A stretch of DNA of 64,000 nt from Terana coerulea. Taxonomy: Eukaryota > Basidiomycota > Agaricomycetes > Polyporales > Phanerochaetaceae. The stretch covers positions 1 to 64,000 of the forward strand of contig JAKOGH010000662.1 in assembly GCA_024811115.1 (NCBI GenBank), written 5' to 3'. Under the pieces are notes generated by a model. It searched no databases. It was not told where the DNA came from and was given only the letters and a program-made list of their open reading frames with translations. The position numbers were made by a program, and so were the translations under genes. Within the stretch, counting starts at the first letter, position 1; each line of letters opens with the position of its first letter. This document shows, piece after piece, positions 10,830-54,847 of the stretch.

Positions 10830-10846
10830 GATTCCGAGTCTGTCCT

Positions 10847-12010
10847 TCACCCCTCAGGCTCCCTCGACCATCTGCCACCGAAAAAACCTAATAAACCACT
10901 CCATTTGGGAGACGTAGACGGTTCAAGTTGAGGGTTACAAGAGCATTGTCGAGACCCAAGCGGGGGGACAGATGGCAAATGAAACAGGCGTAGTCGACAA
11001 GAATGATAAGCCCTCCGCATGGTAAAAGTTCGTCGCCAAGTGTGTAGACATTGCCGAGTATCATTGGCCCTTGTGGACGACGACGAAGTCGGACAGGATA
11101 AGGGTTGTTCTTTAGACGGAGTGTGCCGGACGCAAGCGGAGAGATGCACAGCGCGTTCACAAGGTCGACGTCCGCATAGCCCAGCGGCCGAGCAATTCAA
11201 AGCAGCTATTGTCTGGGCCGTAAGGTGGCTGTTTTTGCGACCATGTAGAGGAGAGCGGATCACGTTGCCGGAGGCTGGAGACTGGTGGGGACAGGTCAGA
11301 ACAGCCTTCTCTTAGGAAGACAGTTAGCTCGCCAGCGACGCAGCTCCTGCAAAAGCTGACCGTCGAGAGGAGGCGCAAGAAGAAGCAGTTTAGCGTTGGG
11401 GGGACGGGCGGGCAGGTGATGGTCGAACAAGCAACGCAGGGACCCGGGTAGTACAGCTTATGCAGTAAGCGCTACATACAAGTCCATAGTAACCGGCGTT
11501 GGTAACAGTCAATGTGGTTAATGACCGGCTATCACAGAATGCCGGTTCCGGTAAACACTCCAATCAAAGGAAGTAAGTACGCTCGTGAAAACGTCGATGC
11601 GCGAAGCTTACCGTCCTCTGCTGGCGATCGCGTGCAGTCGTGGCTATCTTCAACCTCGTGCCCCGAGTCTTATGCTCAGAAAACGATGTCAGCTTTCACT
11701 CTAACCGAGGCCTACCTGCGGTCATGACTCCCTATCGCACGGCTGTCGCGTAATGAATACAGTACGTTCAAAAACTTCCACCTCTGCATGTCGCTCAAGT
11801 GTTTGATAGACATGCTAGATGGTGTAGTTAGCTGAAGGCTTGGGGGAACGGATGCCCCTGTAAAGGTACGTGTGCCTTTTCTTCTTCTTCACAAGAACGA
11901 CTTGTGTGCGCCTAGATGCTCGACCAGTGTGCGTCCTTGCGCCGGACTCAGATACTGTCATCCACATCTCATCTCGTAGCTGCGTTTAGCGACCTCCTTT
12001 GGTCTTGGAT
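10847..12010 (-). pseudogene. Unassigned minus-strand multi-exon gene, copy A
   Basis: Not recognised. The case for coding comes from comparison with copy B (48,885-50,020). In one minus frame near 10,850-10,915 both copies read TVYV....FIRF.RWQ with differences mostly at third codon positions. Near 10,990-11,110 they share LS.FV.V.KGQ.YSAMSTHLAT. Near 11,830-11,880 they share TFTGA.VP...QL.TPS. Copy A has a TGA where copy B has CGA (Arg) in the KGQ-R-YSAM stretch, so copy A is probably dead. Exon limits, start codon and function are unknown. One alternate minus frame in copy A resembles a P450 N-terminus (RRRPQGPMILGNV) but is not kept in copy B, so I discount it. Confidence 0.45.
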
Positions 12011-12164
12011 CTGTAGGGGTCTACTTTCATCACGAACCGTTCTCACCAAGAAATCTGTCAATTTAGATGGGTCTCACGGTACGTGCGTAATCCGTTCCCG
12101 CCGACCTTTAAGGCGAGCATCGTCCTCACCGTGGCGATCCCTATCCCAACGACGCTCGTCAAAG

Positions 12165-13652
12165 ATGACCATGGTGACCAACGGCCGCGTCCTGTTCAAT
12201 GAAATTCCGACTGGTGAGTGCTTTACATTATGTGAAGATATATTCACGAACACTCCGCGTCGTAAGGTTATCCTGAGCCCGGAAGAAGCACTGTATACGA
12301 CGAGTCCCACTCAATCAATATTGATACGGTCGCATTGTATGGTGGCATACTCGTGAAAGAATTTGGTCTTGTCTATAGATCCCTACCTTCGGGGGAAAAT
12401 GAGGGACGGGCCGAAGCCTGAAAGCTACTTCGTAAGTGGCCATACATGTAATTAAATATCCAGATCTGAATAACTGGGGCTATAGCCTGCATTTTCCAAG
12501 GGAGAGCCGTAAGCTGCGTTTCAATGCCCGCAGCGAAATCTTCCTTTAACGTTGATTTCAGTCTGACGAATTTCGGCGTTGGCCAAGTTATCCGTTCAGA
12601 GGATCCCAATGTCAACGTAGGCGACCATGTTTATGGCGTCTTTCGTAAGTCGTTCATCAGTAAAATGCGATGCTCTTCTCTCACGGAAACCAACATTCAG
12701 CATTTGCGGAATATTTCGTCGAGCCGGACACCGAGAAGGTGCGAGTGTTGGATAACAAGGAAGGTATTCCGTGGTCCACGTACGTAGGTGTTGCGGGGAT
12801 GCCAGGTGATGCCATTCTACTATTTCATCGTCATCTGCTAACACATAGTCCAGGACAGAGTGCGTTTTGTGGATGGAAGGAGTACGCTCAACCGAGAAGG
12901 GGTGACGTGGTTTTCGTGACAGCTGGCGCAGGTGCGTTCCTGCCCATCATGGCCAAGGCAATTCGCAATTCATTTCCTGGTGTAGGTGCCGTTGGATCAT
13001 TGGTCATACAGCTGGCAAAAGCAGACGGTCTGAAGATTATCGCGTCTGCAGGGTCGCAGGAGAAAGTCGACTTCATGAAAAGTATCGGTGCAGACATCGC
13101 ATTCAACTATAAGACCACGTCGACTGCGGAGATGTTGGACAGGGAAGGTCCTATTGACATGTGCGCCCATGCCCCTTTATCGCTGACGTTCGGCTTTGAG
13201 TAATGTCGTCGCCTTCAGATACTGGGATAACGTAGGAGGGGAGACCTTCGACACCGCCCTGAGATATGCGGCTCGTCATGCACGCTTTATTGTGCGTACC
13301 CTGCTCATGCTATCAACGGGCTCATTTCATCTCATTGAGCCTTAATTTGCTTAGGAATGTGGCACTATTTCCACCTACAACGGACACGTTCCCCTCATCA
13401 CGAATCTGAAGATGATAGTACCCAAGGAAATCAAAATTATGGGATTTCTTGTCTTTCTCGTTGCTACCAAAGTATTTGGAGGAGTTTTACAGCGAGGTTC
13501 CCAGACGTGTTGCAAGCGGCGAATGGAAACATCTCGAGGACGTGAAGAAAGGTCTGCGGTATGCTGGAGAGGCGATCCTTGACGTGCAGTTGGGTCGAAA
13601 CTACGGAAAAAGTATCATTGAGCTCGACTTCGCTTCAGAGTCCAACTCATAG
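12165..13652 (+). pseudogene. Double-bond reductase (MDR, alkenal reductase type), copy A, frameshifted
   Basis: NADPH-dependent medium-chain reductase of the prostaglandin-reductase/alkenal double-bond reductase group, which reduces C=C next to a carbonyl. The ATG at 12165 opens MTMVTNGRVLFNEIPTG. Exons follow with ILVK, IDPYLRGKMRDGPKPESYF, a micro-exon (PAFSKGEP) and NFGVGQVIRSEDPN..GDHVYGVF. Next come FAEYFVEPDTEKVRVLDN, the coenzyme domain GDVVFVTAGAG/GAVGSLVIQLAKADG (split by an intron) and YWDNVGGETFDTALRYA. The last exon ends at 13652. Compared with copy B there is one extra base near 12,354 (after ILVK) and another near 13,455 (after GFLVF), each shifting frame. Splice sites are otherwise conserved. 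Either this copy is a pseudogene or these are assembly indels. Confidence 0.85.
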
Positions 13653-14374
13653 ACGTTTATTAGAATTGTACAGATATTCATGTTCACTTGAACCAACATG
13701 GCTGTGATTTAAGAATCATGCTTCGGCCCTTCAATTAGTACGGCTTGTTGTCAGTACGACGAACGGCTGCCACCAACACTGCAAGCGGTCCCTGCCCGCG
13801 AGAGGACACAGACGTTGTCCATTATCATTTCGCTTATCTACAACACCCCAACACCATATACACCAAGTGTCCATGTCCAGATACCTCAAGCCTCTGATAA
13901 CATTCAGTAGAGCTCAGGTTCGTCACATTCGCAAGCAGTCCGGTCGGAATGTACAGTGGACCCTTGCTATCCGCACAATCGCACGGGTTCTGACCACGTT
14001 GCCTTCTACTATAGAACATGCTCGCACCCCATTGTAGCATAAACGAAGGTCGTGAAGCCTTTGCAACTACCGAAGCCGACTGTGATAACCAACCACTGGT
14101 GCTAGGATTACGTGCGCAGCCGCATGTGCGCGGGAGTTATCCACGGATGCGAGCATATTGTGGACGCCCCGCTCGAGCGTAGGCATCCGCGTCCAATGGA
14201 GTTCACCATGATGCGCGGGAGTCTGCTTCAACCTTGTGCGCGGGGCTGCTAACCTTATGTTATCCCCGATGCGGAATTCCTCCACGAGATTTCTTACAGA
14301 GCATTTAAGATGAACCCTCGGCGGACCACGCAATCCGTAGGAATGAGGGCTCACTTGCGTTGGCTCATTCACCA
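13653..14374. other. Inter-gene segment with a conserved minus-strand exon-like piece, copy A
   Basis: On the minus strand at about 13,890-13,990 the frame reads KGPLYIPTGLLANVTNL, matching KGPLYLPTGLLGGVTELGP in copy B (51,950-52,040). Most differences fall at third positions, suggesting the 3' end of a real minus-strand gene. I do not recognise the product. Copy B contains less sequence here (about 600 versus 720 bp). Confidence 0.4.
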
Positions 14375-15393
14375 ATGTTTCGAGCCAGGCTGCTTTTCCA
14401 CGCCAGAACTGTTCTTCTGTTTACCCTAGCAGATTTCAAAACAATATTCGTCCCCATTGTGAGTAGCATGTCAGTGACATTCATATGGGGGAGCCCAGAG
14501 ATGCTGACAGTTGAGCATTTTAGTCCGTCTTTGCGTGCGCCACCGCTCCACTGCACTCACTTTCGCGCCTTCCCGTGGGTTGGTCGTGGATATGGTTGCA
14601 CCAGTTTATGTGCAACGTTTCGAACCAGTCCAGAGGTTGCGCCGAGGACAGGATCAACAAACCATGGCGACCCCTTCCTTCGGGACGTATCTCCGAAACA
14701 CAAGCTATTGCATTACGCTGGGTCGCGGTGCTTCTCTGCCTCCTATGCTCCGCAGCATACGGCAGAGACTTGGTCCTAACGACTCTCGCCCTCATTCTTA
14801 CCACGCTACTGTACGACGAGATGGGACTGGCCGGACATTACATTGGCAAGAGCTTCTGCAACATCGGCGGTTATACCTCGTTTGAAATCGGTGCCACGAA
14901 GCTCATGGGTGCGTGGCGTTCTTTGTGGTTGCGATTAGAACTTATAAGATCTGGCAGGGACGAGCCGAGAGATGGACGGCGTTTCATATACAGCCGTCTG
15001 CATTAGCGGAATTCTGATCTTCACAACAATCCAGGCACAAGATTTTGCAGATGTCGAAGGGGATAGGGAGCTTGGGCGCATTACGTTTCAATTTACGCTC
15101 CCGAGCTCTCACGAAAGGCAACGCTGCTTTCCCTCATCTCATGGTCGCTGTTCCTGGGGCAGTTCTGGGGAGTGGGACCCATCTGTCAGATAACGTTCAC
15201 CGGTTTGGGTCTTCTGATCGGTTTGCGCTACTACCTATGGCGAACACGCGACTCCGACAAGGCCTCCTACATCTTGTACAACGTACGTCGTATCCATTGA
15301 CATCGGCTCAGTTACTGAATGTGCCGCTAGATATGGCTTGCTACGGCGCACATGCTTCCGTATCATACCCGGAAAGGCTTACTGAGCTTCTGA
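14375..15393 (+). pseudogene. UbiA-family prenyltransferase, copy A, frameshifted
   Basis: Integral membrane enzyme of the UbiA superfamily (prenyl transfer, or terpene cyclisation in some fungal members). Exon 1 is MFRARLLFHARTVLLFTLAD. Exon 2 carries WIWLHQFMCNVSNQSRG and the first acidic motif CAEDRINKPWRPLPSGRIS, a variant of the classic NDxxDxxxD. Then follow DEMGLAGHYIGKSFCNIGG and GATKLMG. Exon 3 carries the second acidic motif FADVEGDRELGRITF. One base is missing after GRITF (about 15,090-15,110) relative to copy B, which shifts the frame of the last helices. A last exon reads IWLATAHMLPYHTRKGLLSF with stop at 15391-15393. The ATG at 14375 is the natural first Met; a short upstream exon cannot be excluded. 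Confidence 0.85.
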
Positions 15394-15973
15394 CTTGTAG
15401 ATAAAGTGGACGTATCGTTAAGTTAGAATTCATAATTCTTGGTACTAGCTTCCACCAAGTTCCGAACCTATAGCAGCACAATCTTCCCTCATGAGAGATA
15501 GGCATCCGGAAGCCGGTCTCGGAGAGAAGCTCGTGGCGAAGGTTCGTCGGCATTTTCTGTCTCTATTGAGTACCGTAGAGCCTCTGAATCTATTCCCTTA
15601 ATATGTAACGGGATACCCTCCGAAGGATATTTCATATATTCTGATGACTTGTTGTATCCGTCTACGCTGTGGGGAGCACACGCTTGTAAAGCCATTTGTC
15701 GTCATCTTCCCGTTCTCCGACAACCGTTTCCCGACGATCATGGTCGAAGTATCCTTACATTCCGTACCCCGTCACGTCACTCATCCTCTCACGGACATGT
15801 CAAGTTCACTCACAACACATGAATTTAACACATTACTATACGGCTTTGCTCATCAGCGGATTGTCACGAAAACAGCTCGTTCCACGATGTTATGAATAAT
15901 GATGCTAATAATAGCTCTGCTGAGCAATACCTAACAAATTCATGAAATATATCCACTGAAAATGTACAAGTTG
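15394..15973. other. Intergenic, nothing recognised
   Basis: Convergent spacer between the UbiA gene and the Gal80-like gene. It has short frames only, and no counterpart in copy B, so this is about where the aligned block ends. Confidence 0.5.
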
Positions 15974-17278
15974 CTAGTCGAGAAATACTCTTACACCCTC
16001 GCGAGCACTGCGCCTTATCGCAGAGATAACCTTGTGAACACGATAAGCATCACGAAAAGTCGGAACATGTCCCTCATCTCCCTTCGCTATCTCCTCCCAC
16101 GCGCTCGCGACGTTGCTGGTGTAGTCGACGGTCGGTTGCTCAGGTTCCCATTTCTCACCATTGATGAGGACGGTCTTCGGGTGTTGGATGTAGTAGAATG
16201 ACGAGTCGCCTTCCATCTTGATAGTACCCTCCTCTCCGTCGATGATCCACTCGAAGGGGACCCGGCCAGGCTTGTCGGCTGAGAGACTGCGGAAATGGAA
16301 TGAGACGACGGCGCCCGACGTAAGCTGACCAGTGAATGCGATCTGGTCCTCCGTCTTTCGCTCGATCGTTTTGCCAACTAGTTCTCCCGAGGGAGTAACC
16401 AGCTGAGCTATAGGCCAGAGAGTCGCAAATGTCGCAGCAACGGAGACGAAGTCCCCAAGTAAAGGGATAAAGCCCGAGAGAAAGTGCCCGACGGCGATGT
16501 CGAGAAATGAGGCACCTGTCAAAATACTTAGTGCAAAGTAGAGAAACATGGCGGTGTACACGCACCCCTATCCGCGTCAGCGAGATACGTTTTGTGAGTT
16601 GCGACCAGAGGTCCCCAGTACGCTAGCTTATGGGGGCATCCGCCAATCTTCGGAGATACTATTGAGCGCAGAAAAATGATTTTTAAGGTGTCTTGACGTA
16701 CTACGGTAGACCCGACAACTCTGCCTATCCCTCCCGACTGGATGATGTCAGTAATCTGGGCCCAATGTTTTAGTTAAGTCTACCTGGCAAGTCGCTGAAG
16801 AGATGCGTACGTTCTTGAGTGCAGGGCTCTGCTGTACCTGCGACCCAATGATACCTCTCACACCTTTCACCTCCGCCATTTCTGCAATCTCTTGGGTCTC
16901 CTGAATGCTCTTCCCCAGAGGCCACTCCACAAAGACCGCCTTGCCGGCTTCGATGGCGGGAAGGACAGCCTGCCGGTGTGCGCTGACGCGAGCAACCACA
17001 ACCACCATATCCACGTCCGGATCGTTCGCAATGTCGTGGTATCCAGCTTCACCATGGTACGCTTTCACGGAGTGGCCTAGAATAGACGAGTACTTGTCGG
17101 CAGTAGCCTCGGCCGACTTTGGCGACGTGGTGCATAGTGCAACAAGCTCGTATTTGGAAGCGAGTGGTGAAGGTGGAAGGATGGGAGAGAGCAGAATAGG
17201 AGCCCAGCCTCCAGAAACCGAAAGGCCGATGACACCTAGGCGGATCGGCGGAGTCATACCATCTCTACCAGTCGACAT
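15974..17278 (-). CDS. Gfo/Idh/MocA (Gal80-like) NAD(P)-dependent oxidoreductase
   Basis: The ATG is at 17278. The N-terminal Rossmann fold reads PIRLGVIGLSVSGGW, followed by YELVALCTTSPKSAEA, VKAYHG and DPDVDMVVVVARVSAHR. Next is the family signature FVEWPLGKSIQETQEIA, where bona fide dehydrogenases have an EKP motif; the WPLG form is typical of the Gal80-like fungal clade. After an intron around 16,750-16,620 comes YWGPLVATHKTYLADADRG. A second intron (about 16,560-16,515) precedes ASFLDIAVGHFLSGF. The C-terminal beta-sheet domain includes VPFEWIIDGEEGTIKMEG and DAYRVHKVISAIRRSAREG, with stop at 15974. It is either a redox enzyme or a Gal80-style sensor; sequence alone does not decide. It has no counterpart in copy B and no frameshifts. 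Confidence 0.88.
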
Positions 17279-17934
17279 ATAGTGAGCGCGAGATGACAGG
17301 AGTAGTAGAGCCCACCGAGTCGAGGCTCGACCCTATTTGTATCGGCAGCGAATGGGAACCCCCACAGGGTGTCTGAAATTTGATGGGTCAGAGGAACTTG
17401 AAGGCAACCGCTGAGATTACTTAGTGATCATGTTTACAAGCTGCTTACTTGGGCGTTTACTGCTACATTCCCGCGGAATTTAACGTATGGGTAACGCTTA
17501 TACACCAGCTGCATTTTCCAGGTTTTCACGGTGTGCATGCAGGTGGCGGAGGGGAGGAACGGGGCGTGGGAAAGCCCCTCACTTGATCTCGATGTGGATC
17601 AAATTCATAAGCGCCTAAAGTAAAAATCAGAGCTTGGCTGCTGTAGTCTTCGTGGACCAAAGCCCTGGAGCACCTTCAAGCTCAGGATCAATAGAACAGC
17701 CAGAACACCGCTCAGAAAAGTCTCATGGACCAATCGAAAGCTCAATAGCTCTCAAAATCGAGTGAAGCGTAGCGGAAAACGGCGTGCGGTTTCAATCCCC
17801 GCGATGCTTCTTCATATCCCCATTGAGCGGTCAGCGACGCACAGCTTTCCGGGCGACTTGAAAGGGCCAATTTGGGGCTTAGTGAGTCAAGAACAGGCCT
17901 ATGTCTCTCTTACGACTTAGTGTGAGTCTCCAGG
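17279..17934. other. Divergent promoter region, Gal80-like gene / reductase
   Basis: About 650 bp between divergent start codons at 17278 (-) and 17935 (+), so it should contain both promoters. No repeat or open frame of note. The Gal80-like gene may share regulation with the reductase, but that is inference from arrangement only. Confidence 0.5.
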
Positions 17935-19969
17935 ATGGCGTCACCCACTCTCCCACCACTCGACGGAGCACTCTCCACCCTAGTCGAATTTGCCGATTTC
18001 CAGTATCAGCACAACCCCGACTATCCGTCGTATATATTCCCATCCTCAGCAGACCATGAACAGGTGGCCGAAGTCTCGTACGCAGACATGGCCCAGGCCA
18101 GCCATCGAATCGCGCATATCCTACGACCGGGTAGGCAGGGACTTGAAGGAGAAGTTATCGCCGTTTTACTGCATACCGATACCATCTTGTATGCTGCCGC
18201 GTTGCTAGGTATTTTGAGGGCGGGCATGGTGGTACGTGCTCGCACAATTATGCATACCCACGTCGATGACCTAAGCCTTTCGCAGCCCTATCCGATGCTT
18301 CCCCGAGTGTCAGTGGAGGCCATATGTACCATGCTCGAAGCCGCATCTTGTCGCCGTATCATCACACAAGAGTCTCTTCAGCCACTCGCGCACGCAGTAA
18401 AATCTTCAATGCTGAAACGGAACATTGTGATTCGTTTTGACGATCTCCCCACGCTGCATTCAGTATTTCCAGGTCTAGCTGGTGGCGAACCGGGCGCTGC
18501 AATGAGTGCACTGTATCCACCGCCAGCTGTGCCCAGAGAGCATGCGGCTCCTGAGCTGTATCTACACTCGTCAGGCTCTACAGGGCTACCGAAAACAATA
18601 CTCTTCACACGAGAGTGTTTCTGGCTTTGGCTTACTCAACGTAGGTCGTTGTCTGAGAGTCCCCTGATGAAGCAATATTGCTGACCTCTCGTCTGCATAG
18701 CGTTTTACGAAGGCTGTCGCCAGAGAAGGATTCGTTTCGGAACTATGGGCTTGCCAACTTCGCATATGATGGGCGTCTTGATCCAAGTGTGCTTTCCGCT
18801 GATAAGTTCTCAAGGTGTCGCGGTATACGCACCTCAGTCTCCTGCTCCACCCATGCTTCTCGAACCGCAGAGCTTCTATGAGGTCGCGAAGCTCACAAAA
18901 TGCACCGGGATGTGCACCGTGTCTTCATGTGTGGAGGTACGCTCCGAAACTAGACTCGACTTAGCCTAACTATACAACCCGCAATAGGCTTGGACGCATT
19001 CCACCGAAATCATGGACTACCTCAAGACACTCCACGTTCTAGTTCGTTTCTGACCTCGCCTGTCGCTATCTTCTGCTGACGGGAATGCAGATGTTCGGCG
19101 GCGCACCATTACCATCTTCCGTAGGCAACAAAATGGTTGCCGCTGGAGTGCCTATCCTCTCAGGATATGGAGCAACAGAGTTTACGTCGCCTATTAAGAC
19201 GTGGGACGAAGCCTCAGATTCCCCCGCGCAGTTGGAGCCCGACCCGGACTGGGACTATATCCGCATTTCCTCAAACGCAGCCGTGCGATGGGAGCCCCAG
19301 GGCGGCGGCACCTTCGAGCTCGTTGTGGTTGTGAGTTTTGTCAGTGTACTCTTACCGATGCAGTTCTCAAACATCTCGCTAGGACAATGGGAAGCTGGGA
19401 GTTGCCGTGTACAATGTTCCCGGAGAGAAGGCATACGCAACCTCCGATATCTTTGAGCCCCACCCTGTGAGGCAGGGGTTGTGGCGTTTGTAAGTTGTGT
19501 TGTTACCAAAGTCATATTTTCCCGTTGACAGCCTTCTGCTTCAGAGTAGGTCGCAAGGATGATGTGATTCTGATGAGTACAGGTGCGCGCGCGACCATCA
19601 CTCTGCTTGGTGTACCACCGACCGATCGATTGACATCGCAGGCGAGAAGATTGTCCCAATTCCGCAGGAGGGTCATATCACGGCCAGTGCCATGGTGAAA
19701 GGCTGTGTGATGTTCGGCAAGGGACATGAGCAGCCTGGAATTCTGATCGAACCCACGGCTGAGAACGCTGTTGAGTTGAACGACAATGAGGCACTCGCGG
19801 CTTACCGAAACAAGATGTGGTACGTGAGCCAGCTATGTGACTGGCTACGTGCTGAGGTATTTACAGGCCGACGATTGCAGAGGCCAATTTGCTCGCACCC
19901 TCGTTTGCGAAGATATTCAAGGAGATGATAATTGTCGCGGATCCCGCGAAGCCTCTGCCACGAGCAGGC

Positions 19970-20398
19970 TAACAAAGATATGCGCAGATATCTGAGTTCG
20001 CAAGGGTCCGGCTCGCAAGGCGGACGCGCGTGAGGCTAACAGACGGACGGTCAGTCCGAAGCTCAGAGTATGGGAAAGTCTCTGGTGTATGTATTCACCT
20101 AACAGACGGACGGTCAGTCCGAACTACAGCAGTATGTGAGTACATGACGTGTCCGTGAGAACGAAGGGCTACGCACGCTCAGAGTATGGGAAAGTCTCTG
20201 AGAGTGCTCGAACGGAGAGAGTGGGTATATAAGAGAGTGATCGGTTGCTCGTAGCGAGCCTAGAAATTAAGGGACAGGGACGGAGAACGAGTCAGGGGGT
20301 AAACGAAACAAGTCCGTACTAGGGAATCGATAGACCTTGTGGCGCTGATGCGCCGATGCGCCAGGGCGTCTATGCGCACTCAGTCTCCAACTTCGACA
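19970..20398 (-). repeat. Copia 3' LTR (429 bp)
   Basis: It starts taacaaagata and ends cttcgaca on the plus strand. Inside, two blocks are each present twice: taacagacggacggtcagtc and ctcagagtatgggaaagtct. The first contains the short palindrome gacggtcagtcc-like core. A TATA-like gtatataag lies near 20,226. Confidence 0.97.
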
Positions 20399-20412
20399 CT
20401 CCCCTTCAAGCC
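20399..20412 (-). promoter_or_regulatory. Copia polypurine tract
   Basis: The minus strand reads GGCTTGAAGGGGAG immediately before the TGTCGAAG start of the 3' LTR and overlaps the pol stop codon. The same tract, with one base fewer in the G run, precedes the LTR of the small element at 54,848. Confidence 0.85.
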
Positions 20413-23400: not shown

Positions 23401-24506
23401 GAGAAAGACGTCTTGCCTGCAGCGCGCACAGAGCGCTCGGGAATTTCGCGAAAATTCGACAGCATATGCCGGAAGGGGGACATATGATTCGTAGCACCGG
23501 AGTCGTAGATTTCGACCACCGTGTCGTACGTCGAGGCAAGCGCGTCGTCAATAGACTCGTCGGCGGCGGCCCAGCCCTCGTCGTAGACTTCGGCTATCTT
23601 CGCAGAGGCTGCTGGCGAAGACTTCGCAGCAGGTGTCGTCCCAGACGACGTCGAAGAGTTCCCTTGCGCAGAATGCGCACTCTCCGAGTACTTCTTCTTC
23701 GACGGGCATACATTAGCCCGGTGCCCTTTCCCAGAGCACTTGAAGCAAGTAACGTTGTCGTCAGATGACGACGACGATTTCGCACCTCCTCCGCCATTCG
23801 ACTTCCCTCCCCGCTGACCCTTGCCCTTGCCCTTGGCCTTCCATCGGGAATCCACCGCGATAGAGGCTTCGTCCTTCGGCTTAGAGCTCGAGCGAGCGAC
23901 AGTCGAGCGAGACTGAGCTTCAGCACGCAACAGCGGCATGAGCTCTGTGGAAAGGACGGTGCGAGGGGTGATAGGGTTCTGGGAGTTGTAGATGGTGATG
24001 GCGGCTTCATAGGCGGTGACGATATGTTTGAAGGATGTGGGGACGGACGAGATGAGAGCGTCCGTGAAGGTCCTATCCTCGAGAGTGATGCCGGCCTCCG
24101 CGATCTCCTCCTTCAGCTGAACGAGGCGATCGAGGTGCTCTTGCATCTTCTTGTCGTTTTCGCAGGTCAGCGAAAACAAGCGCTTCTGGGCGTTCGCCTC
24201 AGAAGTGGCGGTGGACTGCCCAAAGCGGACCTTCATCGCTGAGATGACGTCCTTCGGAACCTTCACCGTGGATGCGATGTTCATGAAAATCGAATCAGGG
24301 AGCTTGCTGACGAGTGCCGCCAGCAAGGCATTCCCCTCAGCCTCCTTGTCCGCAGGGACGACGGCATCGGTCAGCAGAGTCTTCGACGCTGAGCCAAGCG
24401 CAGCGAAGTTGACCCGCTGGATCCACGTCCGATAATTCGTTCCGTCCGCCTTCAGCGAAGGGACGGACGAGAACGCCTTCTGGATGGTGTCGGCAGCGCT
24501 CGGCAT
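20406..24506 (-). pseudogene. Copia Gag-Pol polyprotein, several frameshifts
   Basis: The likely start is Met at 24,506 (MPSAADTIQKAF); the open frame extends upstream to 24,791. Domains in order: Gag (UBN2-like, WIQRVNFAALGS), CCHC zinc knuckle CFKCSGKGHRANVC (about 23,720-23,760), aspartic protease DSGATNHM (about 23,480), the GAG-pre-integrase segment LGHASFTYLRKM, integrase (IHMDVWGP, then HDTPQHNGSAERTHG after a frame change), reverse transcriptase (ALYGLKQAGRRW and the active site HVDDLTLIA, usually YVDD) and RNase H (YSDADG, SEAEYVALAHAAKEA, YSDNQSAIAL). The stop is 20406-20408. Frame changes occur near 22,710 (one extra base), 22,450 (one base short in an A run), 21,920 and 20,940-21,000. 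With identical LTRs, these look like assembly indels or a copy mobilised in trans. Confidence 0.93.
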
Positions 24507-25348: not shown

Positions 25349-27459
25349 CAGGCAAGGGAACCGTCATCAGGAAGCAGGCCTTGGCTCTATACTCGGAAGA
25401 TATTGAGGAACTGTAAGTGTAGTCTTCGTTCATATTCCAATGCTTACTGACTTGCGGTGTAGATACAAATCTGTAGGACAAAGTATTGATCAAGGCGACG
25501 TAGCACCTCCCAAGTCATGGAAGATCGCGGACTTGGAGCCCTGGTTGGCAGAACGCGCGGCCTCTATCACTTGTCGGCCCGTCCCTTCTCCAACCGCGAA
25601 TTTATTTGAGCACGGCTTTGATAGGTAGGTGATCGTATGACTTGACCCGGCGCCGTTCTGACAGTCTGAATTGTAGTCTGAGTGCAACATTTTTCCGCAA
25701 TCGCATTATTGGCGCACTCAGAGCTTCTACTGAAGTGAGCGTCGCAAATGCGGCGGGGCGGATAACACAGAATTTGGTGTATGAACATTTGACCATCCGG
25801 CGGCTGGCGGCTGGAATCGCTCAACTGGTCGCACCCTCAGAAAGCTCCGGCGACCCTCTCGCCTCTATTTCTACTCGGATCGAAGACGTCCAGGAGGTAG
25901 TAACAAAGTATTGTGCAGGAATACACCACGTACACAGGTCTTCTTTCCCTTCAACCATCTTCAATCTCGGCCCGACCGTTCTTGTGACTGGCACTACGGG
26001 CAACATTGGATCTCATATACTTGCCGCTCTGCTATCCGGTCCTGCTATCGGTCACGTCTACGCTCTTAATCGCCCTTCTTCCGATCCTATGCGGCGACTC
26101 AAGACATCATTCCGCGACCGCGGTTTGCCGGATATCCTACTGAACAGCCCGAAGTTCACCTTACTCACCGGGAATGTGGCTGAGAGCACTTTTGGTTTGC
26201 CGGCGGCTCAATTCAACGAAGTACGCTTAGTACGAAGACATACATTGGTCATCCTGACACTCGCTGTTCGTAGGTTCTCGGCTTGCTTACCCATATTATT
26301 CACAATGCTTGGACTGTGAACTTCAACCTTCCGCTCAATGCATACCAGGACCAGATTGCGGGGATCCGATCGCTGCTCGAGGTCTCCGCCTCGGTCAACC
26401 CGTCTGTCAGAATCTTCTTCACCTCTTCCATCGGAGTCGCTAGCCTCTGGGACCCTTCAAACGGACCTGTGCCGGAGTACCCATTGTCAGATCCTGGGAC
26501 CGCAATTAGTACAGGGTACTCTGCGTCTAAATATGTCGTCGAGAAGGTACGTCTTTCAGGAAATATATAGGCTGAGGATCCCTTCTTACCTATATCACAG
26601 ATGCTAGAATACGCAAGAGCCCAAGGTCTCACTACTGTAATAGTGAGAATGGGCCAAGCGTGTGGCTCTCTAGGTACGGGGGCTTGGGGCACAACAGAAT
26701 GGCTTCCGATAATGGTGAAATCCGGTCTCGTACTCGGCTCTCTGCCCGATCTCTCTGGGGTAAGCGTCGAACACCAGTCTCCGCCAACCTTGGCGACTGA
26801 CTCACGACATCTTTAGCTAGTTTCGTGGGTACCGTTGGATGCGGTCGGCCGAACGTATGTCGACTTGGTGCTGTTGAAGGATAACCCGCCGCTCCTCGTA
26901 AACCTAGTACATCCCCATCCAACGACATGGGAAATCGTACTCCAGGGCATCGTCGAGGAGCTGAACGGACGACTGACCATTGTACCTTCCGAGGAATGGT
27001 TCGACAAGCTTGAGCGATTATCTGTGACGGCCACAGAGCAAGATCTGGCTCAAATTGTACGTTCTGCAGCCGCCGTCTAGTCGCGTCTCATCATACTGAT
27101 GCTCATTCTAGCCGGCCTTACGACTACTCCATTTCTTCCGCGGCGTTGCGAGCTCTTCTACTGCTAAGCTCTTTTACGAGACGTCCAAGTTAGAGGAGTC
27201 CGCTCCAACAATGCACGACCTACCCTCCCTCTCAGCTGAGTACGGCAGAAAGTGGGTACGATACTGGAAGTCAATAGGGTACATAGGACTGGACTAGAAG
27301 TAACTAACAACGAGTATGGTCTTTAGAATCCGTGTAAATATTGCATATTTAAGTTTTAGCAACGCTCTGCCTACACTTCAACTTACAGTAACGAGGGCTG
27401 TGGTGCTCGAGGCACCCGCTTCATCTGACTCCAGCCCCGTTGCTCGTGCCAAGCCGTCT

Positions 27460-28275: not shown

Positions 28276-28392
28276 TCCGACTCTGCAAGTATGAATCTCG
28301 TCTGCCACGGTGTTTTCCCGGACGACATGAGGACGTTCCGTGTATCACTCGTATATTGTCATAAAATAGAATCGAGAGTCTTCACGTAGAGT

Positions 28393-40900: not shown

Positions 40901-41299
40901 ACATGTGATATCTACTGCTTAATCCAGCCCGCCGAGACATTCGCGCAGTCAGCTGCAAAGTATCGGTTAATGTTGTGCACTAGTTTGGAGTAAAGGGGAC
41001 ATACTCAAGTACATGTTGATGATGTCCTAGTGGATCTCACGATCGTCCATCAGACATCCGGGCGTACTAGTCGTCAATGACGTCGTTGCTGTCCTTGTTT
41101 CCGAGGGACACAGCTTCCTCGATGTCAGGGTGATCATGGGCGTCGGCCGTCCTCCCTGTCAAGCGACATTTGCATGTCAACTTCATCGGACCAGATGATC
41201 AGTGAGGGTTCACATGAGCTGCGCTTGGTGGGGCAAGAGGAGCTACCCTCGATGAACTCCGGCTCAGCAAACTTGCGTTTGAGAGTGATGTTGTTCAAG
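40901..41299. other. Junction between Copia remnant and Gypsy remnant
   Basis: No recognisable protein. A plus frame from 41,174 is open into the RT region, but its first 40 residues do not match any RT I know. The Copia 5' truncation point lies here. Confidence 0.45.
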
Positions 41300-48199: not shown

Positions 48200-48876
48200 T
48201 TCCTCAGGCACTCTCGACAGAGTAAGGGCACTGTGAAGCTCGGCGGGTGTGGTTCATCTTCATCGTCGGCCGCGACTACCCCGGATGTACTCCAGTCACC
48301 ACAGCTAGTGTTGCCTTGCTGGAATCCGGTAGAGAAGGGGACAAGGCTTCATGCCTGCGAACGAGTGGAATGGAACTCGGCACGTTTATCAGTAGTTTGA
48401 TCGTGCAGTACCACATCCCTGCACTTGTGGAAAATGCGCAGGGCGATGAATTTGGGATCGTTGGTTGATCCATGGGCTGTGCGTTCGTCCTCGCCAGCTG
48501 TAGGTAGTCTTGATGTACTGTCGAGAAACGTAACCGCCTGCTTCAGCTCTTGTTTGCAAGATCAATGGCGTTTTCGTGCGCAAAGAATCGGGTAAATGTA
48601 CTTACCGACGTTGCAAAACCAAGCTCCGCGATATTGGGAGTGCTCATCCCTTCCAGGGCGTAGACGCATTTGATCGACGAGTCCATACCCGCCGAGCTCA
48701 GGGTCTTCATCCACTGGGTCACATCGTACATCAAGCACGGCGACCTGTCCGTGCGCAACCCGGATTCGCCGTCATATGTTGTACCCACGACTTCCCATGC
48801 GCCAAGCTCCTACGGCATGTCCGATGACGAGCTCGCCACTAATGCAGGCAGGAGGCAGACTTACCTTAGACTTTGA
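48200..48876 (+). pseudogene. Alpha/beta-hydrolase, decayed
   Basis: Reads ALVENAQGDEFGIVG, TGA, SMGCAFVLA: a nucleophile elbow GWSMG whose Trp codon has become TGA at 48,466-48,468, leaving the Ser in place. After an intron-like gap the frame continues SIPAELRVFIHWVTSYIKHG, DLSVRNPDSPSYVV and SSYGMSDDELA, the usual C-terminal half of this fungal family, ending at 48,874-48,876. Upstream exons are not clear. Sits directly left of duplication copy B and is not found next to copy A. Confidence 0.65.
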
Positions 48877-48884
48877 CTATCAGC

Positions 48885-50020
48885 GACCCCTAATCTGTCC
48901 TTCAACCCTTCCTCGCCTATCTGCCACCGAAGAAATCTTATGAAGCAATCCTTTGGAGGAACGTAGACAGTTCAAATTGAGCATTGCAGAGTATCGTCGA
49001 GACTCAAGCAAGGGGGCAGATAGTGAATGCAACGGGCGTAGTCAATGAAAATGATAAATCATTCGCATGGCGAAACGCAGTCGCCAAGTGTGTAGACATT
49101 GCCGAATATCGTTGACCCTTGGGGACGATGACGAAGTTGGACAGGATGAAGATGAAGTATGCCGTATGCGAACGGAGAGATGCACGGCGCGTTCACAGAG
49201 TGGTCGTCTGCATATTCCAGTAGCCATTCGGTTCAGTCCACCTATTGTCTAGGCCTTAAGGTGGCTGTGTTTACGGCGCATGAAGCTTGAAGAGGAGAGC
49301 GGAACACGTTACCGGAAGCAGGAGCCTGGTAGGACAGGTTAGAACAGTCTTCCCTTGGAAAGACGATACGCTTACCAGTGGAACGTCTCCTTCAGGGCCT
49401 AACCATCGAGATGAGGGGCAAGTAACAGGGTGTTCAGGAGTCCAGTATCGTGGGTGGTGGGTGCGCAGGTGATGGACGGACAGTAACATGGGCCCGGGGT
49501 GGCGCGGCAAATGCACGCAGGTGGTAATAAGCAGTAAGCGCTACATACAAACTAACCATTAACGGCGTTAACAGGGGGTCAATATGGCTACTGACCGGCT
49601 ACACGATTTTGCCGAGTCCGGTAAGTGCTGTAAGTGAAGCAAGTAAGTACGCTGGTGAGACTATCGGTGTACGAAGCTTACCGTCCTCTAACCTCGCTCC
49701 GAAGGCCTTGTGCTCAAGCAGCAAGGTCAGCTTTCACCCTGGCTGAAGCCTCTTCGCGGTCATGTCCCTCAACGGCTTTCACGAGATGAATACGATACGG
49801 AAGTTGGGGACGTGCACTTCTACCTTGGAACATCTCGCTCAAGCGTTTCATACACATGTCAGACGGTGTGGGCAGCTGGGAAATTGAGGGAACGCATGCA
49901 CCCGTAAAGGTACGCATATCATTTATTCTCTGCAAGAGCGACTTGCGCGCGTCCACCGGGTTTATGTTCGACCAGTGTGCGAGATCCGGACTCGCATGCT
50001 TGGCAGTCACATCCATCCCA
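48885..50020 (-). CDS. Unassigned minus-strand multi-exon gene, copy B
   Basis: Function unknown. Candidate exon frames that agree with copy A are FIRFLRWQIGEEG (about 48,910-48,960), LSNFVIVPKGQRYSAMSTHL (about 49,070-49,150; copy A has a stop at the Arg) and TFTGACVPSISQLPTPSDMC (about 49,850-49,920). Differences from copy A concentrate at third codon positions, which argues for past purifying selection. Exon joins and start codon are not resolved. Confidence 0.45.
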
Positions 50021-50209
50021 AAGCATAGCTCCGTCTAATAACCTCTAGTTTTAGATTCGCCGGAGACCGTTTCTATCACGAGCTGGTTCTCACTCAGAGC
50101 TTTGTGCTTATAGATGGATCTCACGGTACTTGCGTGCTTTATTCCTGCCGACCTTTAAGGCGCGCATCCCCACCACCGTGGCGCCCCATCCCACTCACGC
50201 TCGTCAACG

Positions 50210-51698
50210 ATGTCCATGTTGACTAATGGACGTGTCCTGTTCAACGAGATTCCAATAGGTGAGTGCTCTACACTACGCGATGATACCACTACAACTCACT
50301 ACGCCTTAAGGCTATCCTGAACCTGGAAGAAGCACCTTATACGACGAATCCCATTCAATTGACCCTGATACTGTCGCATTACGAGGTGGCATTCTGGTAA
50401 AGAATTTGGTCTTGTCTATAGACCCCTACATGCGCGGAAAGATGAGGGACGGTCCGAAGCCTGAAAGTTACTTCGTGAGTGTCCGTATTCTTGATCGAAT
50501 ACTTTGCTCTAAATTATTGGGAATATAGCCCGCATTTTCCAAGGGGGAGCCGTAAGTTGCGCTTCAATCCTTGCGGCATCTCTCATGACAATTTTGAATG
50601 TCAGTCTAACGAATTTCGGCGTCGGTCAAGTCATCCGCTCAGAGGACCCCGCGGTCAACGCAGGCGACCATGTCTATGGAGTCTTTCGTACGTCGAGCAT
50701 TACTATGAGCCCATGTCTGTATCTTACGGAACGAACCTTTAGCATTTGCGGACTACTTTATTGAGCCGGATACTGGTAGAGTGCGAGTGCTGGACAACAA
50801 GGAAGGCCTCCCATGGTCCGCCTACGTGGGTATTGCAGGGATGCCAGGTAATGGCTATACTGCTTTTTTGATCGCAACACCTCCTAACACAAAGGCTAGG
50901 GCAGAGTGCATTTTGTGGGTGGAAGGAGTACGCTCAATCGAAGAGGGGTGATGTGGTTTTTGTGACGGCTGGTGCTGGTGTGTGCCTCCCCATCATGGCC
51001 AAGTCACATCTCAATTCATGTCCTGGTGTAGGTGCCGTTGGATCGTTGGTCATACAGCTGGCAAAAGCGGATGGTCTGAAGGTCATCGCGTCTGCAGGGT
51101 CGCAGGAGAAAGTCGAATTCATGACAAGTATCGGTGCAGATGTTGCATTTAACTACAAGACCACGGCGACCGCGGAAGTGTTGGACAGGGAAGGTCCTAT
51201 TGACATGTACGCTCATGCCTTATTATCTCTGACGTTCGGCTTCCAGTAATCTCGTCGCCTTCAGATATTGGGATAACGTAGGAGGAGAGACTTTTGACAC
51301 CGCCCTCAGATATGCGGCTCGCCATGCGCGCTTTATTGTGCGTACACTGATCATGCTGTCCATGGGCTCGTTTCGTCTCATTACGCCTTATTTTCACTTA
51401 GGAATGTGGTACCATCTCCACCTACAACGGACAGGCCCCCCTCATCACGAACCTGAAGATGATAGTACCCAAGGAGATCAAAATCCAGGGATTTCTTGTC
51501 TTCTCACTGCTACCGAAGTACTTGGAGGAGTTTTATAGCGAGGTCCCTAAGCGTGTTGCAAGCGGGGAGTGGAAACATCTCGAGGACGTTAAGCACGGTC
51601 TGAGGTATGCTGGCGAGGCGATTCTTGACGTGCAGTTGGGTAGAAACTTCGGAAAGAGTATCATCAAACTCGCCTCCGCTTCAAAACCCAACTCATAG
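50210..51698 (+). CDS. Double-bond reductase (MDR, alkenal reductase type), copy B
   Basis: NADPH-dependent reductase of alpha,beta-unsaturated carbonyls, medium-chain superfamily, expected in the cytosol. The ATG at 50,210 gives MSMLTNGRVLFNEIPIG. Exon 2 is YPEPGRSTLYDESHS … ILVKNLVLSIDPYMRGKMRD. Then follow the micro-exon PAFSKGEP and LTNFGVGQVIRSEDP…AGDHVYGVFP. Next are FADYFIEPDTGRVRVLDN, GDVVFVTAGAG/GAVGSLVIQLAKADG (nucleotide-binding turn AxxGxxG, intron inside), IGADVAFNYKTTATAE and IYWDNVGGETFDTALRY. The last exon GFLVFSLLPKYLEEFYSEVP…GRNFGKSII stops at 51,696-51,698. About eight exons with introns near 50 nt; all splice sites conserved with copy A and no frameshift found. This is likely the functional copy of the pair. 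Confidence 0.9.
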
Positions 51699-52301
51699 AC
51701 GTTTACTACAGCTACGCGGATATTCAGGCTCACACAGACCAACATGGCCGTCATCACAGAATCGTACTTGAGTCATTCACATAGTACTCCCTGTCGTTGG
51801 TATAACAGATGGTCACAATGAACTTTGCAAGCAATCAACGTCTGCGATAAAATATAGACGCTGTCCATTACCATTCGAACTCTCCACGATGCCCCAGCAC
51901 GAGGTAGATCAAGGGTTCAAACGTTCACTTTCAGGTTCTGCAAGCCTCTGTGATACTTGATAGGGCCCAGCTCCGTCACGCCCCCAAGCAGTCCGGTCGG
52001 AAGGTATAGTGGGCCCTTCCCATCCGTATAATTGCGCGCGTCCTGATCGCATTACCTTCTATAGAACGTATTCACACACCACTGTATCATGAATGAAGGC
52101 GATGAAGCCTTCGCAGTTAACGACGCCGATTGGAGTAACCGATAGCTCATGCTAGGATTGCGTGCACGGCTGACGCTAACCTTGCATTATCCCCGGTGTA
52201 GCATTTCTCCACGAAATTCTTTCCGGTGCATTTAAGATGAACCCTCGGCGGACCACGCCATCCGTAGGATTGAAGGCTCACTTGCGCCGGCTTGTTCACC
52301 A
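51699..52301. other. Inter-gene segment with a conserved minus-strand exon-like piece, copy B
   Basis: Minus strand about 51,925-52,040 reads KGPLYLPTGLLGGVTELGPI, then YHRGLQNLKVNV and a stop, matching copy A at about 13,900. Probably the 3' end of an unrecognised minus-strand gene. Confidence 0.4.
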
Positions 52302-53322
52302 ATGCTTCGAGCCAGGCTGCTTTACCACGCCAGAACTATTCTTCTGTTTACCCTAGCAGATTTCAAAACAATATTCATCCCTATTGTGAGTAGCTTGTCA
52401 ATCGCATGCATGTGAGGGGGAGCCCGAGGTGCTGACAGTTGAGCTTTTTAGTCCGTCTTCGCATGCGCCACCGCTCCTCTGCACTCGCTCTCGCGTCTCC
52501 CTGCGGGCTTGTCCTGGATATGGTTGCACCAGTTTATGTGCAACGTTTCAAACCAGTCCAGAGGATGCGCCGAGGACAGGATTAACAAACCGTGGCGACC
52601 TCTTCCTACGGGAAGAATTTCCGAAACTCAAGCCATCGTGTTACGCTGGGTCTCGGTGCTTTTCTGCCTGCTCTACTCTGCAGCATACGGCAGAGACTTG
52701 GTCCTGACAACTCTCGCCCTCATCCTCACCACGCTTCTGTACGACGAGATGGGATTGGCTGGGCATTACATCGGCAAGAGCTTCTGCAACATCGGCGGTT
52801 ATACCACGTTTGAAATAGGTGCCACGAAGCTCATGGGTGTGTGATGTTCTTCGTAGCTGCGACCCGAACTGACGTGAATGCGGCAGGAATGAGCCGAGAG
52901 ATGGATGCCATTTCATATACAGCCGTCTGCATTAGCGGAAGTCTGATTTTTACAACAATCCAGGCGCAAGACTTCGCAGATGTCGGAGGGGATAGGGAGC
53001 TTGGGCGCATCACGTTTCCGATTCACTCCCCCGAACTTTCACGAAAGGCGACGCTTCTTGCGCTCGTCTCATGGTCGCTGTTCCTGGGGCCGTTTTGGGG
53101 AGTGGGACCCATCTGTCAGACGATATTCACTTGTTTGGGTCTTCTTATCGGCTTGCGCTATTATCTGTGGCGAACACCCCATTCCGACAGGGCCTCCTAC
53201 ATCTTGTACAACGTACGTCGTATCAATTAAACTTGCTCAGCCACTGAATATACTGCTAGATATGGCTTGCTGCGGCGCACATGCTCCCATATCATACTCG
53301 AAAAGGATTGCTAAGATTCTGA
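52302..53322 (+). CDS. UbiA-family prenyltransferase, copy B
   Basis: Multi-pass membrane enzyme of the UbiA superfamily. The ATG at 52,302 opens MLRARLLYHARTILLFTLAD. Exon 2, after a tttttag acceptor, reads VFACATAPLHSLSRLPAGLS, WIWLHQFMCNVSNQSRG and the acidic motif CAEDRINKPWRPLPTGRIS. Then come DEMGLAGHYIGKSFCNIGG and, after an intron, MDAISYTAVCISGSLIFTTI and the second acidic motif FADVGGDRELGRITFPI. Helices WSLFLGPFWGVGPICQTIF and LLIGLRYYLWRT precede a last intron (GTACGT donor at SYILYN). The final exon IWLAAAHMLPYHTRKGLLRF stops at 53,320-53,322. Some fungal UbiA proteins transfer prenyl groups, others cyclise terpenes; the variant first motif (ED..NKP for ND..D) does not decide. 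The frame is intact, unlike copy A. Confidence 0.88.
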
Positions 53323-53891
53323 CGTATCCGACCTGATTAGACCTGTAGGTACCGGAGAACACCATAAAAACCGGCGGGGTGCTGAAGTCTTATGTCGCAG
53401 ATATCTGTTACAAAACTCCCAAGAATGGCTGGTCTTCTATCTGCTTGCTGTTGGCCCCATTCCCCAAGGGCCTGTACGCCCCTGGCACCATCTGGTAGGT
53501 AATGGATATTGGCTTCTGCGATCTCATCGGCGCACATTCTTGCCTATACCAGGCAAGATGGATTTCAAGCGGGGCTGGTACAGTTTGTTCGATGCGAGTT
53601 CCATCTGGCAGCATGAGTACCACTTCTTCATATTCTATCAGATATGGCTTGGAATACCGCACATGCTTCCATATGATGCTCCTGAGGCCGTGCCAAATCC
53701 CACCTTCTGTTTGTCGTCTGCCGGTCCTCGGCATGCGTCGGAGAAGACCGACCGCTTTCCATCTCCGCGAGAGTCGCTGGCGTCCATGATGGTGATGAGC
53801 GACGAGACCTTGCTATCTGAAAAGACAGGCTCACGAGCCCGGCATCCGTAGATAGTTCACTTCTCTCCGTGTGTTTCACATTGAACTGTAA
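53323..53891 (+). other. Segment with a UbiA-like C-terminal fragment
   Basis: A plus frame at 53,540-53,851 contains FYQIWLGIPHMLPYDAPEAV, which resembles the last exon of the neighbouring UbiA gene (IWLAAAHMLPYH). The nucleotide match agatatggctt…cacatgct is shared. It may be a duplicated last exon or the end of a second UbiA-like gene; the rest of the frame is unrecognised. A minus frame overlapping it is also open. Confidence 0.4.
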
Positions 53892-54559
53892 TAGTGTTGC
53901 CGAAGTTCAGTTCAGTTCGGTTCGGGTCCATTTTTGTCCGAACCAGAACCAGAACCAAGTGTTTAGCAGCCGAACCTGAACTGAACTGAACTGAACCAGT
54001 ATGAACTGGTTCGGTTGGTTCAGTTCAGGGTTCGAACTGGTTCGAACCATTGAACCATGTATATATCAGCTTTACTCTGTCAAATCAGTATAATTGCAAT
54101 GGTAGATTATAATAGAGTTATATATTGACATCTAGAAGAGTTTGTATAGTGCAAAAGCCTTACATTATGATGTTTTGAAGCTCAGTGTCTGATAGAGGCT
54201 GCCAGTTGCCTTTTTGGCAGCTATTGATGGCATCATATATACACCAAAACATAAGCAGAGTGACATTTGATGCTCAGTTTACAAGCACAACAATGAAAAA
54301 ATAGTTTAGACATGCTATAGTAAGTAAGTTCATGTACTTTTCTCATGAATCCCAGTACAAATACACTACATAACATATACATGGTTCACGGTTCGAACCG
54401 GTTCGAACTTGGTTCAGAGCGTGACAGCCATGCCCCGAACCAAGAACCGAACCAAGTTATCTAGAGGCCGAACCAGAACCGAACCAAACTGAACCACACG
54501 GTTCGGTTCATCGGTTCTGGTTCTGAACCGCCGAACTGAACTGAACTTCGGCAACACTA
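53892..54559. mobile_element. hAT-type MITE (668 bp) with GGTTCGAACC-rich ends
   Basis: Inverted ends TAGTGTTGCCGAAGTTCAGT (53,892) and its mirror ending CTTCGGCAACACTA (54,559), flanked by a perfect 8-bp duplication AACTGTAA (53,884-53,891 and 54,560-54,567). Each end holds dense runs of ggttcgg, ccgaacc, gaaccgg and gaactga, forming many nested small palindromes. The middle (54,060-54,380) is AT-rich and non-coding. Target size and TAG…CTA ends fit the hAT superfamily. It sits two bases before the copy B reductase ATG. Confidence 0.92.
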
Positions 54560-54569
54560 AACTGTAAGG

Positions 54570-54847
54570 ATGGCCGCGCCCATTCTGCCTCCTCTCAATG
54601 GAACACTCTACTCTAACCGAATTTGCCGATTTTCGAACGAACACAACCCGGATTTCCGTTCTATGTGTTCCCTTCCCCAAGATCCCGCTGAAAGTGGTGA
54701 TAGTCTCGTATTCAGCCATGGTTCAAGCTAGTCATCGAGTTGCGCACATTCTGCAACCAGGTCGCCGAGGACCCGAAGGGAAGTTATTGCCGTTTTGCTG
54801 CACACCAATACTATCTTGTACGGCGCTGTCCTTCTTAGTATTATGAG
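54570..54847 (+). pseudogene. Adenylate-forming reductase, copy B 5' fragment
   Basis: Starts MAAPILPPLNGTL, matching the copy A start. A two-base deletion soon after shifts the frame where copy A reads LVEFADF. Later nucleotides again follow copy A (agctagtcatcgagttgcgcacat) up to the codons for LLSIMRA, where the small LTR element is inserted at 54,848. Only a few bases beyond the element (from 56,216) could continue the gene; then similarity ends. Clearly dead: frameshift, insertion and loss of almost all of the gene. Confidence 0.88.

What the first reader, a model, noticed from the sequence alone, without database searches (positions are those of the whole stretch)
10830..54847. A dispersed duplication of a metabolic gene block with complementary decay of the two copies
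Sequence shows the same ordered genes (unassigned minus gene, double-bond reductase, minus exon piece, UbiA, reductase start) at 10.8-18.2 kb and 48.9-54.8 kb. Copy A has frameshifts in the double-bond reductase and UbiA genes but a full-length adenylate-forming reductase gene. Copy B has intact reductase and UbiA genes but only a 5' stub of the adenylate-forming reductase. Inference: after duplication each copy lost different members, so the pathway would need genes from both loci, or the apparent losses are partly sequence errors.
Basis: partly seen in the sequence, partly recalled or inferred. Interest (0 to 1): 0.75.

Follow-up and report, generated by a model that had tools for sequence, protein, structure and literature searches.

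The report
Duplicated fungal gene cluster, transposon-split reductases
A mushroom-type fungus carries two related copies of a small metabolic gene block; two of the genes look cared for by selection in both copies, but the large carboxylate-reductase gene has been split by transposon insertions in each, and the apparent frameshifts look more like assembly errors than decay.

Summary
The duplication is real: a 4.6 kb tract (10808-15394 vs 48863-53323) with an ene-reductase (DBR) and a UbiA gene is repeated, followed both times by an adenylate-forming reductase (AFR). "Complementary decay" does not hold. (1) Copy A's AFR is split in a coding exon by a copia element with identical 429-bp LTRs. 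(2) Copy B's AFR is no stub: the window ends inside a 9.95 kb nested insertion and the gene resumes at contig 64797. (3) Copy A's three single-base frameshifts are in the assembly, but DBR and UbiA show purifying selection (dN/dS about 0.1) with no excess of amino-acid changes in A, and chaperonin and HSP70 genes of this assembly carry similar frameshifts. (4) The block is a mosaic: DBR/UbiA introns are 72-76% identical, AFR introns 49%, unrelated DNA 41%. The one clear presence/absence difference is a GAL80-like gene near A and not B. A third cluster (C506) has an AFR without insertion. Mostly ordinary: known processes, with independent transposon hits in the same gene of both copies.

The parts
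10808..15394 (+). Copy A of the younger tract (upstream spacer, DBR, spacer, UbiA); ends at the UbiA stop codon
   Evidence: blastn to 48863-53323; spacers/introns 72-76% identical
48863..53323 (+). Copy B of the same tract
12165..13652 (+). DBR-A: ene-reductase (double-bond reductase) gene, 9 exons; one 1-base length difference each in exons 2 and 9
50210..51698 (+). DBR-B: 9 exons, 348 aa, open
   Evidence: PDB 8ov8 Ene-reductase 1, E 6.9e-126
14375..15393 (+). UbiA-A: 4 exons; one 1-base length difference in exon 3
52302..53322 (+). UbiA-B: 4 exons, 285 aa, open; 66% identical over its whole length to a Phanerochaete carnosa protein
15974..17332 (-). GAL80-like (Gfo/Idh/MocA) gene, next to copy A only; relatives at C506, C505, C572
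   Evidence: PF01408, PF22685; GAL80 structures
17935..19969 (+). AFR-A, 5' part (adenylation domain), up to the copia insertion
   Evidence: PF00501
19970..25348 (-). Ty1/copia LTR element in an AFR-A coding exon; LTRs 19970-20398 and 24920-25348 identical; target duplication CAGGC at 19965-19969 and 25349-25353
25349..27290 (+). AFR-A, 3' part (carrier and reductase region)
   Evidence: PF07993
53892..54559 (.). hAT-like MITE (668 bp), 8-bp target duplication AACTGTAA; ends 10 bp before the AFR-B start codon at 54570
54570..54847 (+). AFR-B exon 1, 5' part; the gene resumes at contig C508:64797 beyond the window
54848..56215 (.). TRIM-like short LTR element, terminal repeats of about 206 bp, target duplication ATGAG
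56223..64000 (.). Large DNA element (56223-64796 on the contig, cut by the window end) in AFR-B exon 1, ATGAGGG on both sides; DUF6589 gene (-) and helicase-like ORF (+)
63383..64000 (.). Second hAT-like MITE (63383-64047 on the contig), inverted, nested in the large element, target duplication TTCAAGAA

Best explanation
Copies A and B are two paralogous specialised-metabolism clusters (DBR, UbiA, AFR; plus a GAL80-like gene at A) lying 38 kb apart on one contig of a genome that looks like an Agaricomycete's. Their AFR genes diverged long ago. The adjoining DBR-UbiA tract shares a younger ancestor, most likely because of a later gene conversion or unequal exchange between the clusters (inferred). 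DBR and UbiA stayed under purifying selection in both copies (shown by dN/dS). Transposons then entered a coding exon of the AFR independently in each cluster: a very young copia element in A; in B a large DNA element of unmeasured age and then a young TRIM at its edge, with a MITE just before the B start codon (shown by terminal repeats and target duplications). The single-base frameshifts in A most likely are assembly errors. Net effect (inferred): the ene-reductase and UbiA steps are still encoded, while the carboxylate-reduction step of both clusters is cut off in the sequenced haplotype.
For: Insertions: 429 of 429 LTR positions identical and target duplication CAGGC; homology to AFR-B and to the uninterrupted C506 AFR on both sides of the site. 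B: TRIM flanked by ATGAG, large element by ATGAGGG, AFR-B resuming at 64797. Selection: A-B dN/dS 0.128 (UbiA, 284 codons) and 0.086 (DBR, 348 codons); lineage-unique synonymous/nonsynonymous changes A 20/10 vs B 30/16 (UbiA) and A 44/18 vs B 39/16 (DBR). Assembly errors: both held copies of a chaperonin (CCT) gene carry exon frameshifts, one shared and one private each; two HSP70 genes do too. Mosaic: introns 76% (UbiA), 72% (DBR), 49% (AFR, both parts), UbiA-AFR spacer 41%, 20 unrelated pairs mean 41%.
Against: The error test rests on few genes, and the frameshifted ones were picked because the output showed frame breaks; one control, a COX10-like gene, has an open 450-aa frame. Copy A has 3 exon indels and B none in the same 1.9 kb, which a chance error rate allows but does not require. 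Reads and RNA were not available. dN ratios (A-B over A-C506) are similar for UbiA (0.43), DBR (0.47) and AFR part 1 (0.45), though not AFR part 2 (0.66), which would fit a single age for most of the block; I weigh the intron evidence more. Whether another nucleus carries uninterrupted AFR alleles is unknown.
Confidence: 0.8

Rival explanations
1. Complementary decay: after duplication A lost DBR and UbiA, B lost AFR, and the pathway needs both loci.
For: A has three 1-base exon indels in DBR and UbiA, B has none there; AFR-B is broken; the GAL80-like gene is near A only.
Against: AFR-A is interrupted too. No excess of amino-acid changes in A. Same-type frameshifts in housekeeping genes.
Confidence: 0.08
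2. A's DBR and UbiA indels are real but very recent pseudogenisation, in step with the recent copia insertion: the whole A cluster is starting to die while B keeps DBR and UbiA.
For: LTR identity sets the copia insertion at under 0.7% divergence (95% bound), and A shows no sign of long relaxation, so recent loss would look just like this.
Against: Error-type indels in chaperonin and HSP70 genes; C506 DBR and GAL80-like exons show single-base breaks too.
Confidence: 0.2
3. One single duplication of the whole block, with the AFR simply evolving faster.
For: dN ratio A-B over A-C506 similar for UbiA 0.43, DBR 0.47, AFR part 1 0.45.
Against: AFR part 2 ratio 0.66; introns of AFR 49% identical against 72-76% in DBR/UbiA; pS 0.72 and 0.63 in the AFR parts against 0.31 and 0.43.
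Confidence: 0.25
4. Assembly artefact: A and B are two haplotypes or misjoined copies of one locus.
For: The assembly appears to hold some genes twice (CCT on C534/C204; HSP70 on C2/C344).
Against: A and B lie on one contig, differ at 98 of 857 (UbiA) and 147 of 1047 (DBR) exon sites, and have different neighbours and insertions; the two CCT copies differ at only 15 of 1689 sites.
Confidence: 0.03

Closest known systems
Agaricomycete UbiA-type prenyltransferases (VibP1, ClaS, PanE, HePT8, LaPT3; as described in PMC12790560, passages read)
   Same: PF01040 family; all 120 listed relatives of UbiA-B carry PF01040, and the named ones are mostly Agaricomycete proteins (two named are ascomycete)
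   Different: First motif reads NQxxGxxxD, not NQxxDxxxD; 73 of 87 hits of 270 aa or more also lack the first Asp, 1 has it, 13 did not fit the pattern. None of the characterised enzymes was compared directly. Aromatic prenyl transfer versus terpene cyclisation not decided
Ene-reductase 1 (PDB 8ov8) and plant double-bond reductases
   Same: Match over residues 1-341 of 348, E 6.9e-126
   Different: Activity untested; sits in a cluster with UbiA and AFR
Fungal adenylate-forming (carboxylate) reductases, A-T-R type (PMC9605436, search listing and start of abstract)
   Same: AMP-binding and NAD_binding_4 domains in order
   Different: Both cluster copies are interrupted by transposons
Ty1/copia LTR retrotransposons
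   Same: Gag and integrase-side domains before reverse transcriptase; 5-bp target duplication; LTRs
   Different: Nothing notable; relatives at 89-99% on eleven other contigs and at 75% on C260
Duplicated metabolic gene clusters of fungi with later gene loss (recalled as a kind)
   Same: Paralogous clusters with differences in gene content
   Different: Mosaic age, and independent transposon hits in the same gene of both copies

Membership tests
UbiA superfamily | PF01040 match over cut-off | tested here: met
   UbiA-B exon 2 alone 54.2 bits against 34.2
UbiA superfamily | First Asp-rich motif NQxxDxxxD | tested here: not met
   Gly in place of the first Asp; 73 of 87 long relatives lack it too
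UbiA superfamily | Second Asp-rich motif | tested here: met
   DFADVGGDRELGR in B; pattern D..D..GD...GR in 80 of 87 long relatives
Adenylate-forming reductase (A-T-R) | Adenylation domain | tested here: met
   PF00501 51.2 bits
Adenylate-forming reductase (A-T-R) | Reductase domain | tested here: met
   PF07993 43.6 bits
Adenylate-forming reductase (A-T-R) | Carrier (thiolation) domain | not tested
   Region spans two exons; only read by eye
Adenylate-forming reductase (A-T-R) | Uninterrupted gene | tested here: not met
   Copia in A, TRIM and DNA element in B
Ene-reductase / double-bond reductase | Full-length homology to solved enzymes | tested here: met
   8ov8, residues 1-341
Ene-reductase / double-bond reductase | NADPH-dependent alkene reduction | not testable with these tools
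   needs assay
Ty1/copia element | LTRs, 5-bp target duplication, copia gag and RVT_2 domains | tested here: met
Complementary decay after duplication | Each copy has lost what the other keeps | tested here: not met
   AFR interrupted in both; DBR/UbiA under purifying selection in both; only the GAL80-like gene differs

The most novel reading that the evidence does not exclude
Convergent truncation: the fungus keeps two selected DBR-UbiA modules, homogenised by gene conversion, while independent transposon insertions have removed the same carboxylate-reduction step from both clusters, so that the end product may have shifted from aldehyde/alcohol to acid, with the third cluster (C506) keeping an uninterrupted AFR.
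Probability: 0.15. Interest if true: 0.45.

Novelty: new member of a known kind. Interest (0 to 1): 0.3.

Why it matters
It corrects two claims (an intact AFR in A, a stub in B) that a gene caller or reader working from the window alone would make, and it warns that single-base frameshifts in this assembly cannot by themselves be used as evidence of pseudogenes. If the parallel AFR interruptions are fixed in the species, the locus is a clean natural case for asking whether transposons change the end product of a fungal pathway twice in the same way.

Tried and rejected
Considered and dropped: A and B as haplotypes (same contig, dS 0.40-0.65). AFR-B as a stub (rest found beyond the window). AFR-A as full-length (copia in exon). 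The 'minus gene' at 10.8 kb as coding (no codon rhythm). The large-element ends were first set at 56346-64715 from a 68-bp inverted repeat; comparison with other copies moved them to 56223-64796.

Led nowhere: paper searches for adenylate-forming reductase + UbiA + basidiomycete (0 papers) and for DUF6589 (0 papers); a search on transposons and pseudogenes in clusters (137 papers, 20 listed, none opened) and one on mushroom ene-reductases (3 listed, none opened). The first comparison of the GAL80-like gene used the wrong strand of C506 (empty) and was redone. The DNA search did not list the query's own place, so absence of further copies from it is weak. In one search the C506 DBR also shows a 39-base insertion in the last exon, which the alignment does not show; I take it for an edge effect. 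Species identity was not determined; the best UbiA relative is only 66% identical.
Full report
Setting. The window is the first 64,000 bases of an 81,200-base contig (C508) in a 48.4 Mb, 896-contig genome. The genes have many introns. Of the 120 listed UbiA-B relatives (123 found) all carry PF01040 and the named ones are mostly Agaricomycete proteins, best Phanerochaete carnosa at 66% over the full length; two named ones are ascomycete. UbiA matches are many here: 49 exon-level matches on 17 contigs, one of them a COX10-like gene.

The duplication. Self-comparison gives 10808-14115 vs 48863-52165 (74%), 14248-15394 vs 52175-53323 (86%) and a short AFR match 17932-18191 vs 54567-54820 (73%). 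With GT-AG introns at the same places, DBR has 9 exons and UbiA 4 exons in both copies. B reads open in both (348 and 285 aa). In A, DBR differs by two single-base insertions and UbiA by one single-base deletion. DBR-B matches Ene-reductase 1 (8ov8, E 6.9e-126).

Copy A's AFR is not intact. The exon that ends LPRAG at 19969 resumes with GKGTVIRKQ at 25351; the third cluster on C506 runs straight through the same place. Between them lies a copia element 19970-25348 with gag, integrase-side and reverse-transcriptase domains on the minus strand, LTRs identical at 429 of 429 sites and target duplication CAGGC. Zero differences in 429 sites bound LTR divergence at 0.7% (95%), against dS 0.40-0.65 between the DBR and UbiA copies.

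Copy B's AFR is not a stub. DNA searches of the whole genome found the missing parts on the same contig past the window end (65296-66561 and 67181-68180). Fetching the rest of the contig shows exon 1 broken at 54847 and resuming at 64797. In between are a TRIM-like element (54848-56215, ATGAG on both sides) and a large DNA element (56223-64796, ATGAGGG on both sides) that carries DUF6589 and helicase-like ORFs (the helicase match is weak, 17.7 bits against a cut-off of 26) and a nested MITE (63383-64047, TTCAAGAA). The TRIM sits in the left target repeat of the large element, so the large element came first; its age was not measured. TRIM terminal repeats show 0 substitutions in 204 sites. A related MITE (53892-54559, AACTGTAA) ends 10 bases before the AFR-B start codon. 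AFR-B also loses frame just after the LPRAG motif, which by the next argument may be an assembly error.

Are the frameshifts decay? Between A and B, dN/dS is 0.128 for UbiA (284 codons) and 0.086 for DBR (348 codons). Polarised with C506, changes unique to A are 20 synonymous and 10 nonsynonymous (UbiA) and 44 and 18 (DBR); those unique to B are 30 and 16, and 39 and 16. A therefore shows no relaxation. As a test of the assembly I looked at housekeeping genes. Two near-identical copies of a chaperonin gene (CCT; C534, C204) differ at 15 of 1689 aligned sites with 4 single-base indels, and, read by eye, each copy is frameshifted in exons, once at a shared place and once privately. An HSP70 gene on C530 loses frame inside its DVNPLTLGIET motif, and an HSP70 gene on C2 and C344 loses frame at the same place in both. 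The finer gene and motif names here are recalled. These genes were picked because the output suggested frame breaks, so they show that such errors exist, not their rate; most other CCT and HSP70 matches there gave no such sign. A COX10-like gene on C217 is open over 450 aa. C506's DBR and GAL80-like genes also have single-base breaks. TRIM terminal repeats differ by 0 substitutions and 2 indels, and the two MITEs by 1 substitution and 4 internal indels (a fifth, 10-base gap is an alignment end). Indels are thus over-represented against substitutions in these two pairs; the copia LTR pair has neither.

The block is a mosaic. Noncoding identity between A and B is 74% upstream of DBR, 72% in DBR introns, 72% in the DBR-UbiA spacer, 76% in UbiA introns, 41% in the UbiA-AFR spacer and 49% in AFR introns (both parts, introns there being what lies between the conserved exon cores); 20 pairs of unrelated stretches average 41%, maximum 45%. 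Synonymous differences per site are 0.31 (UbiA), 0.43 (DBR; z 2.7 against UbiA), and 0.72 and 0.63 in the two AFR parts (a first-exon piece of 61 codons gave 0.68). AFR A-B dN/dS is 0.08 and 0.22 in the two parts and 0.27 in the first-exon piece, so the AFRs too were long constrained. The young tract ends at the UbiA stop codon. A later conversion or exchange between two old neighbouring clusters explains this best. Against it, dN ratios relative to C506 are similar for UbiA, DBR and AFR part 1 (0.43, 0.47, 0.45), but 0.66 for AFR part 2.

Third cluster. C506 holds DBR, UbiA and a GAL80-like gene in the same relative order and orientation as A, a relative of the aldo-keto-reductase region at window 4.4-5.8 kb, and an AFR in which no insertion was seen, at 38-71% aa identity to A by exon. 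This order suggests that B lost the GAL80-like gene. The uninterrupted C506 AFR may or may not cover the same reaction.

Verdict. Literature seen: PMC12790560 (passages), PMC9605436 (search listing with the start of its abstract); other papers only as listings.

Noticed in passing
window 56223-64000 and on to C508:64796: An 8.6 kb DNA element with a DUF6589 gene (minus) and a weakly helicase-like ORF (plus). Shorter relatives on C728, C534, C55 and C488 share both ends; further matches on C604, C410 and C133. No paper in the library holds the word DUF6589.
   Followed up: partly
window 53892-54559 and 63383-64047: hAT-like MITE family with 8-bp target duplications; 32 long matches at 94-99% listed besides the first copy itself, only 40 of 218 candidates scored.
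   Followed up: partly
C506:15341-16699, empty site at window 7776-7780: A TRIM copy inserted in the C506 relative of the window's 6.8-10.0 kb region; the window holds the site without the element. Transposons have entered all three clusters' neighbourhoods.
   Followed up: partly
window 20409-24911: The copia element in AFR-A has identical LTRs, yet its own coding region is open only in pieces lying in different frames (22053-24911, 21863-22741, 20884-21987, 20409-21317): either more single-base assembly errors or a copy that was already broken when it moved.
   Followed up: no
genome, UbiA matches: Large UbiA family: 49 exon-level matches on 17 contigs; 73 of 87 long relatives of UbiA-B lack the first Asp of the NQxxDxxxD motif.
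   Followed up: partly
C534/C204, C2/C344, C530: Chaperonin and HSP70 genes frameshifted in the assembly, some at the same place in both held copies: systematic single-base errors are likely, so pseudogene calls in this genome need care.
   Followed up: partly
window 41081-43998: Gypsy-type reverse transcriptase and chromodomain-integrase pieces between the two clusters.
   Followed up: no
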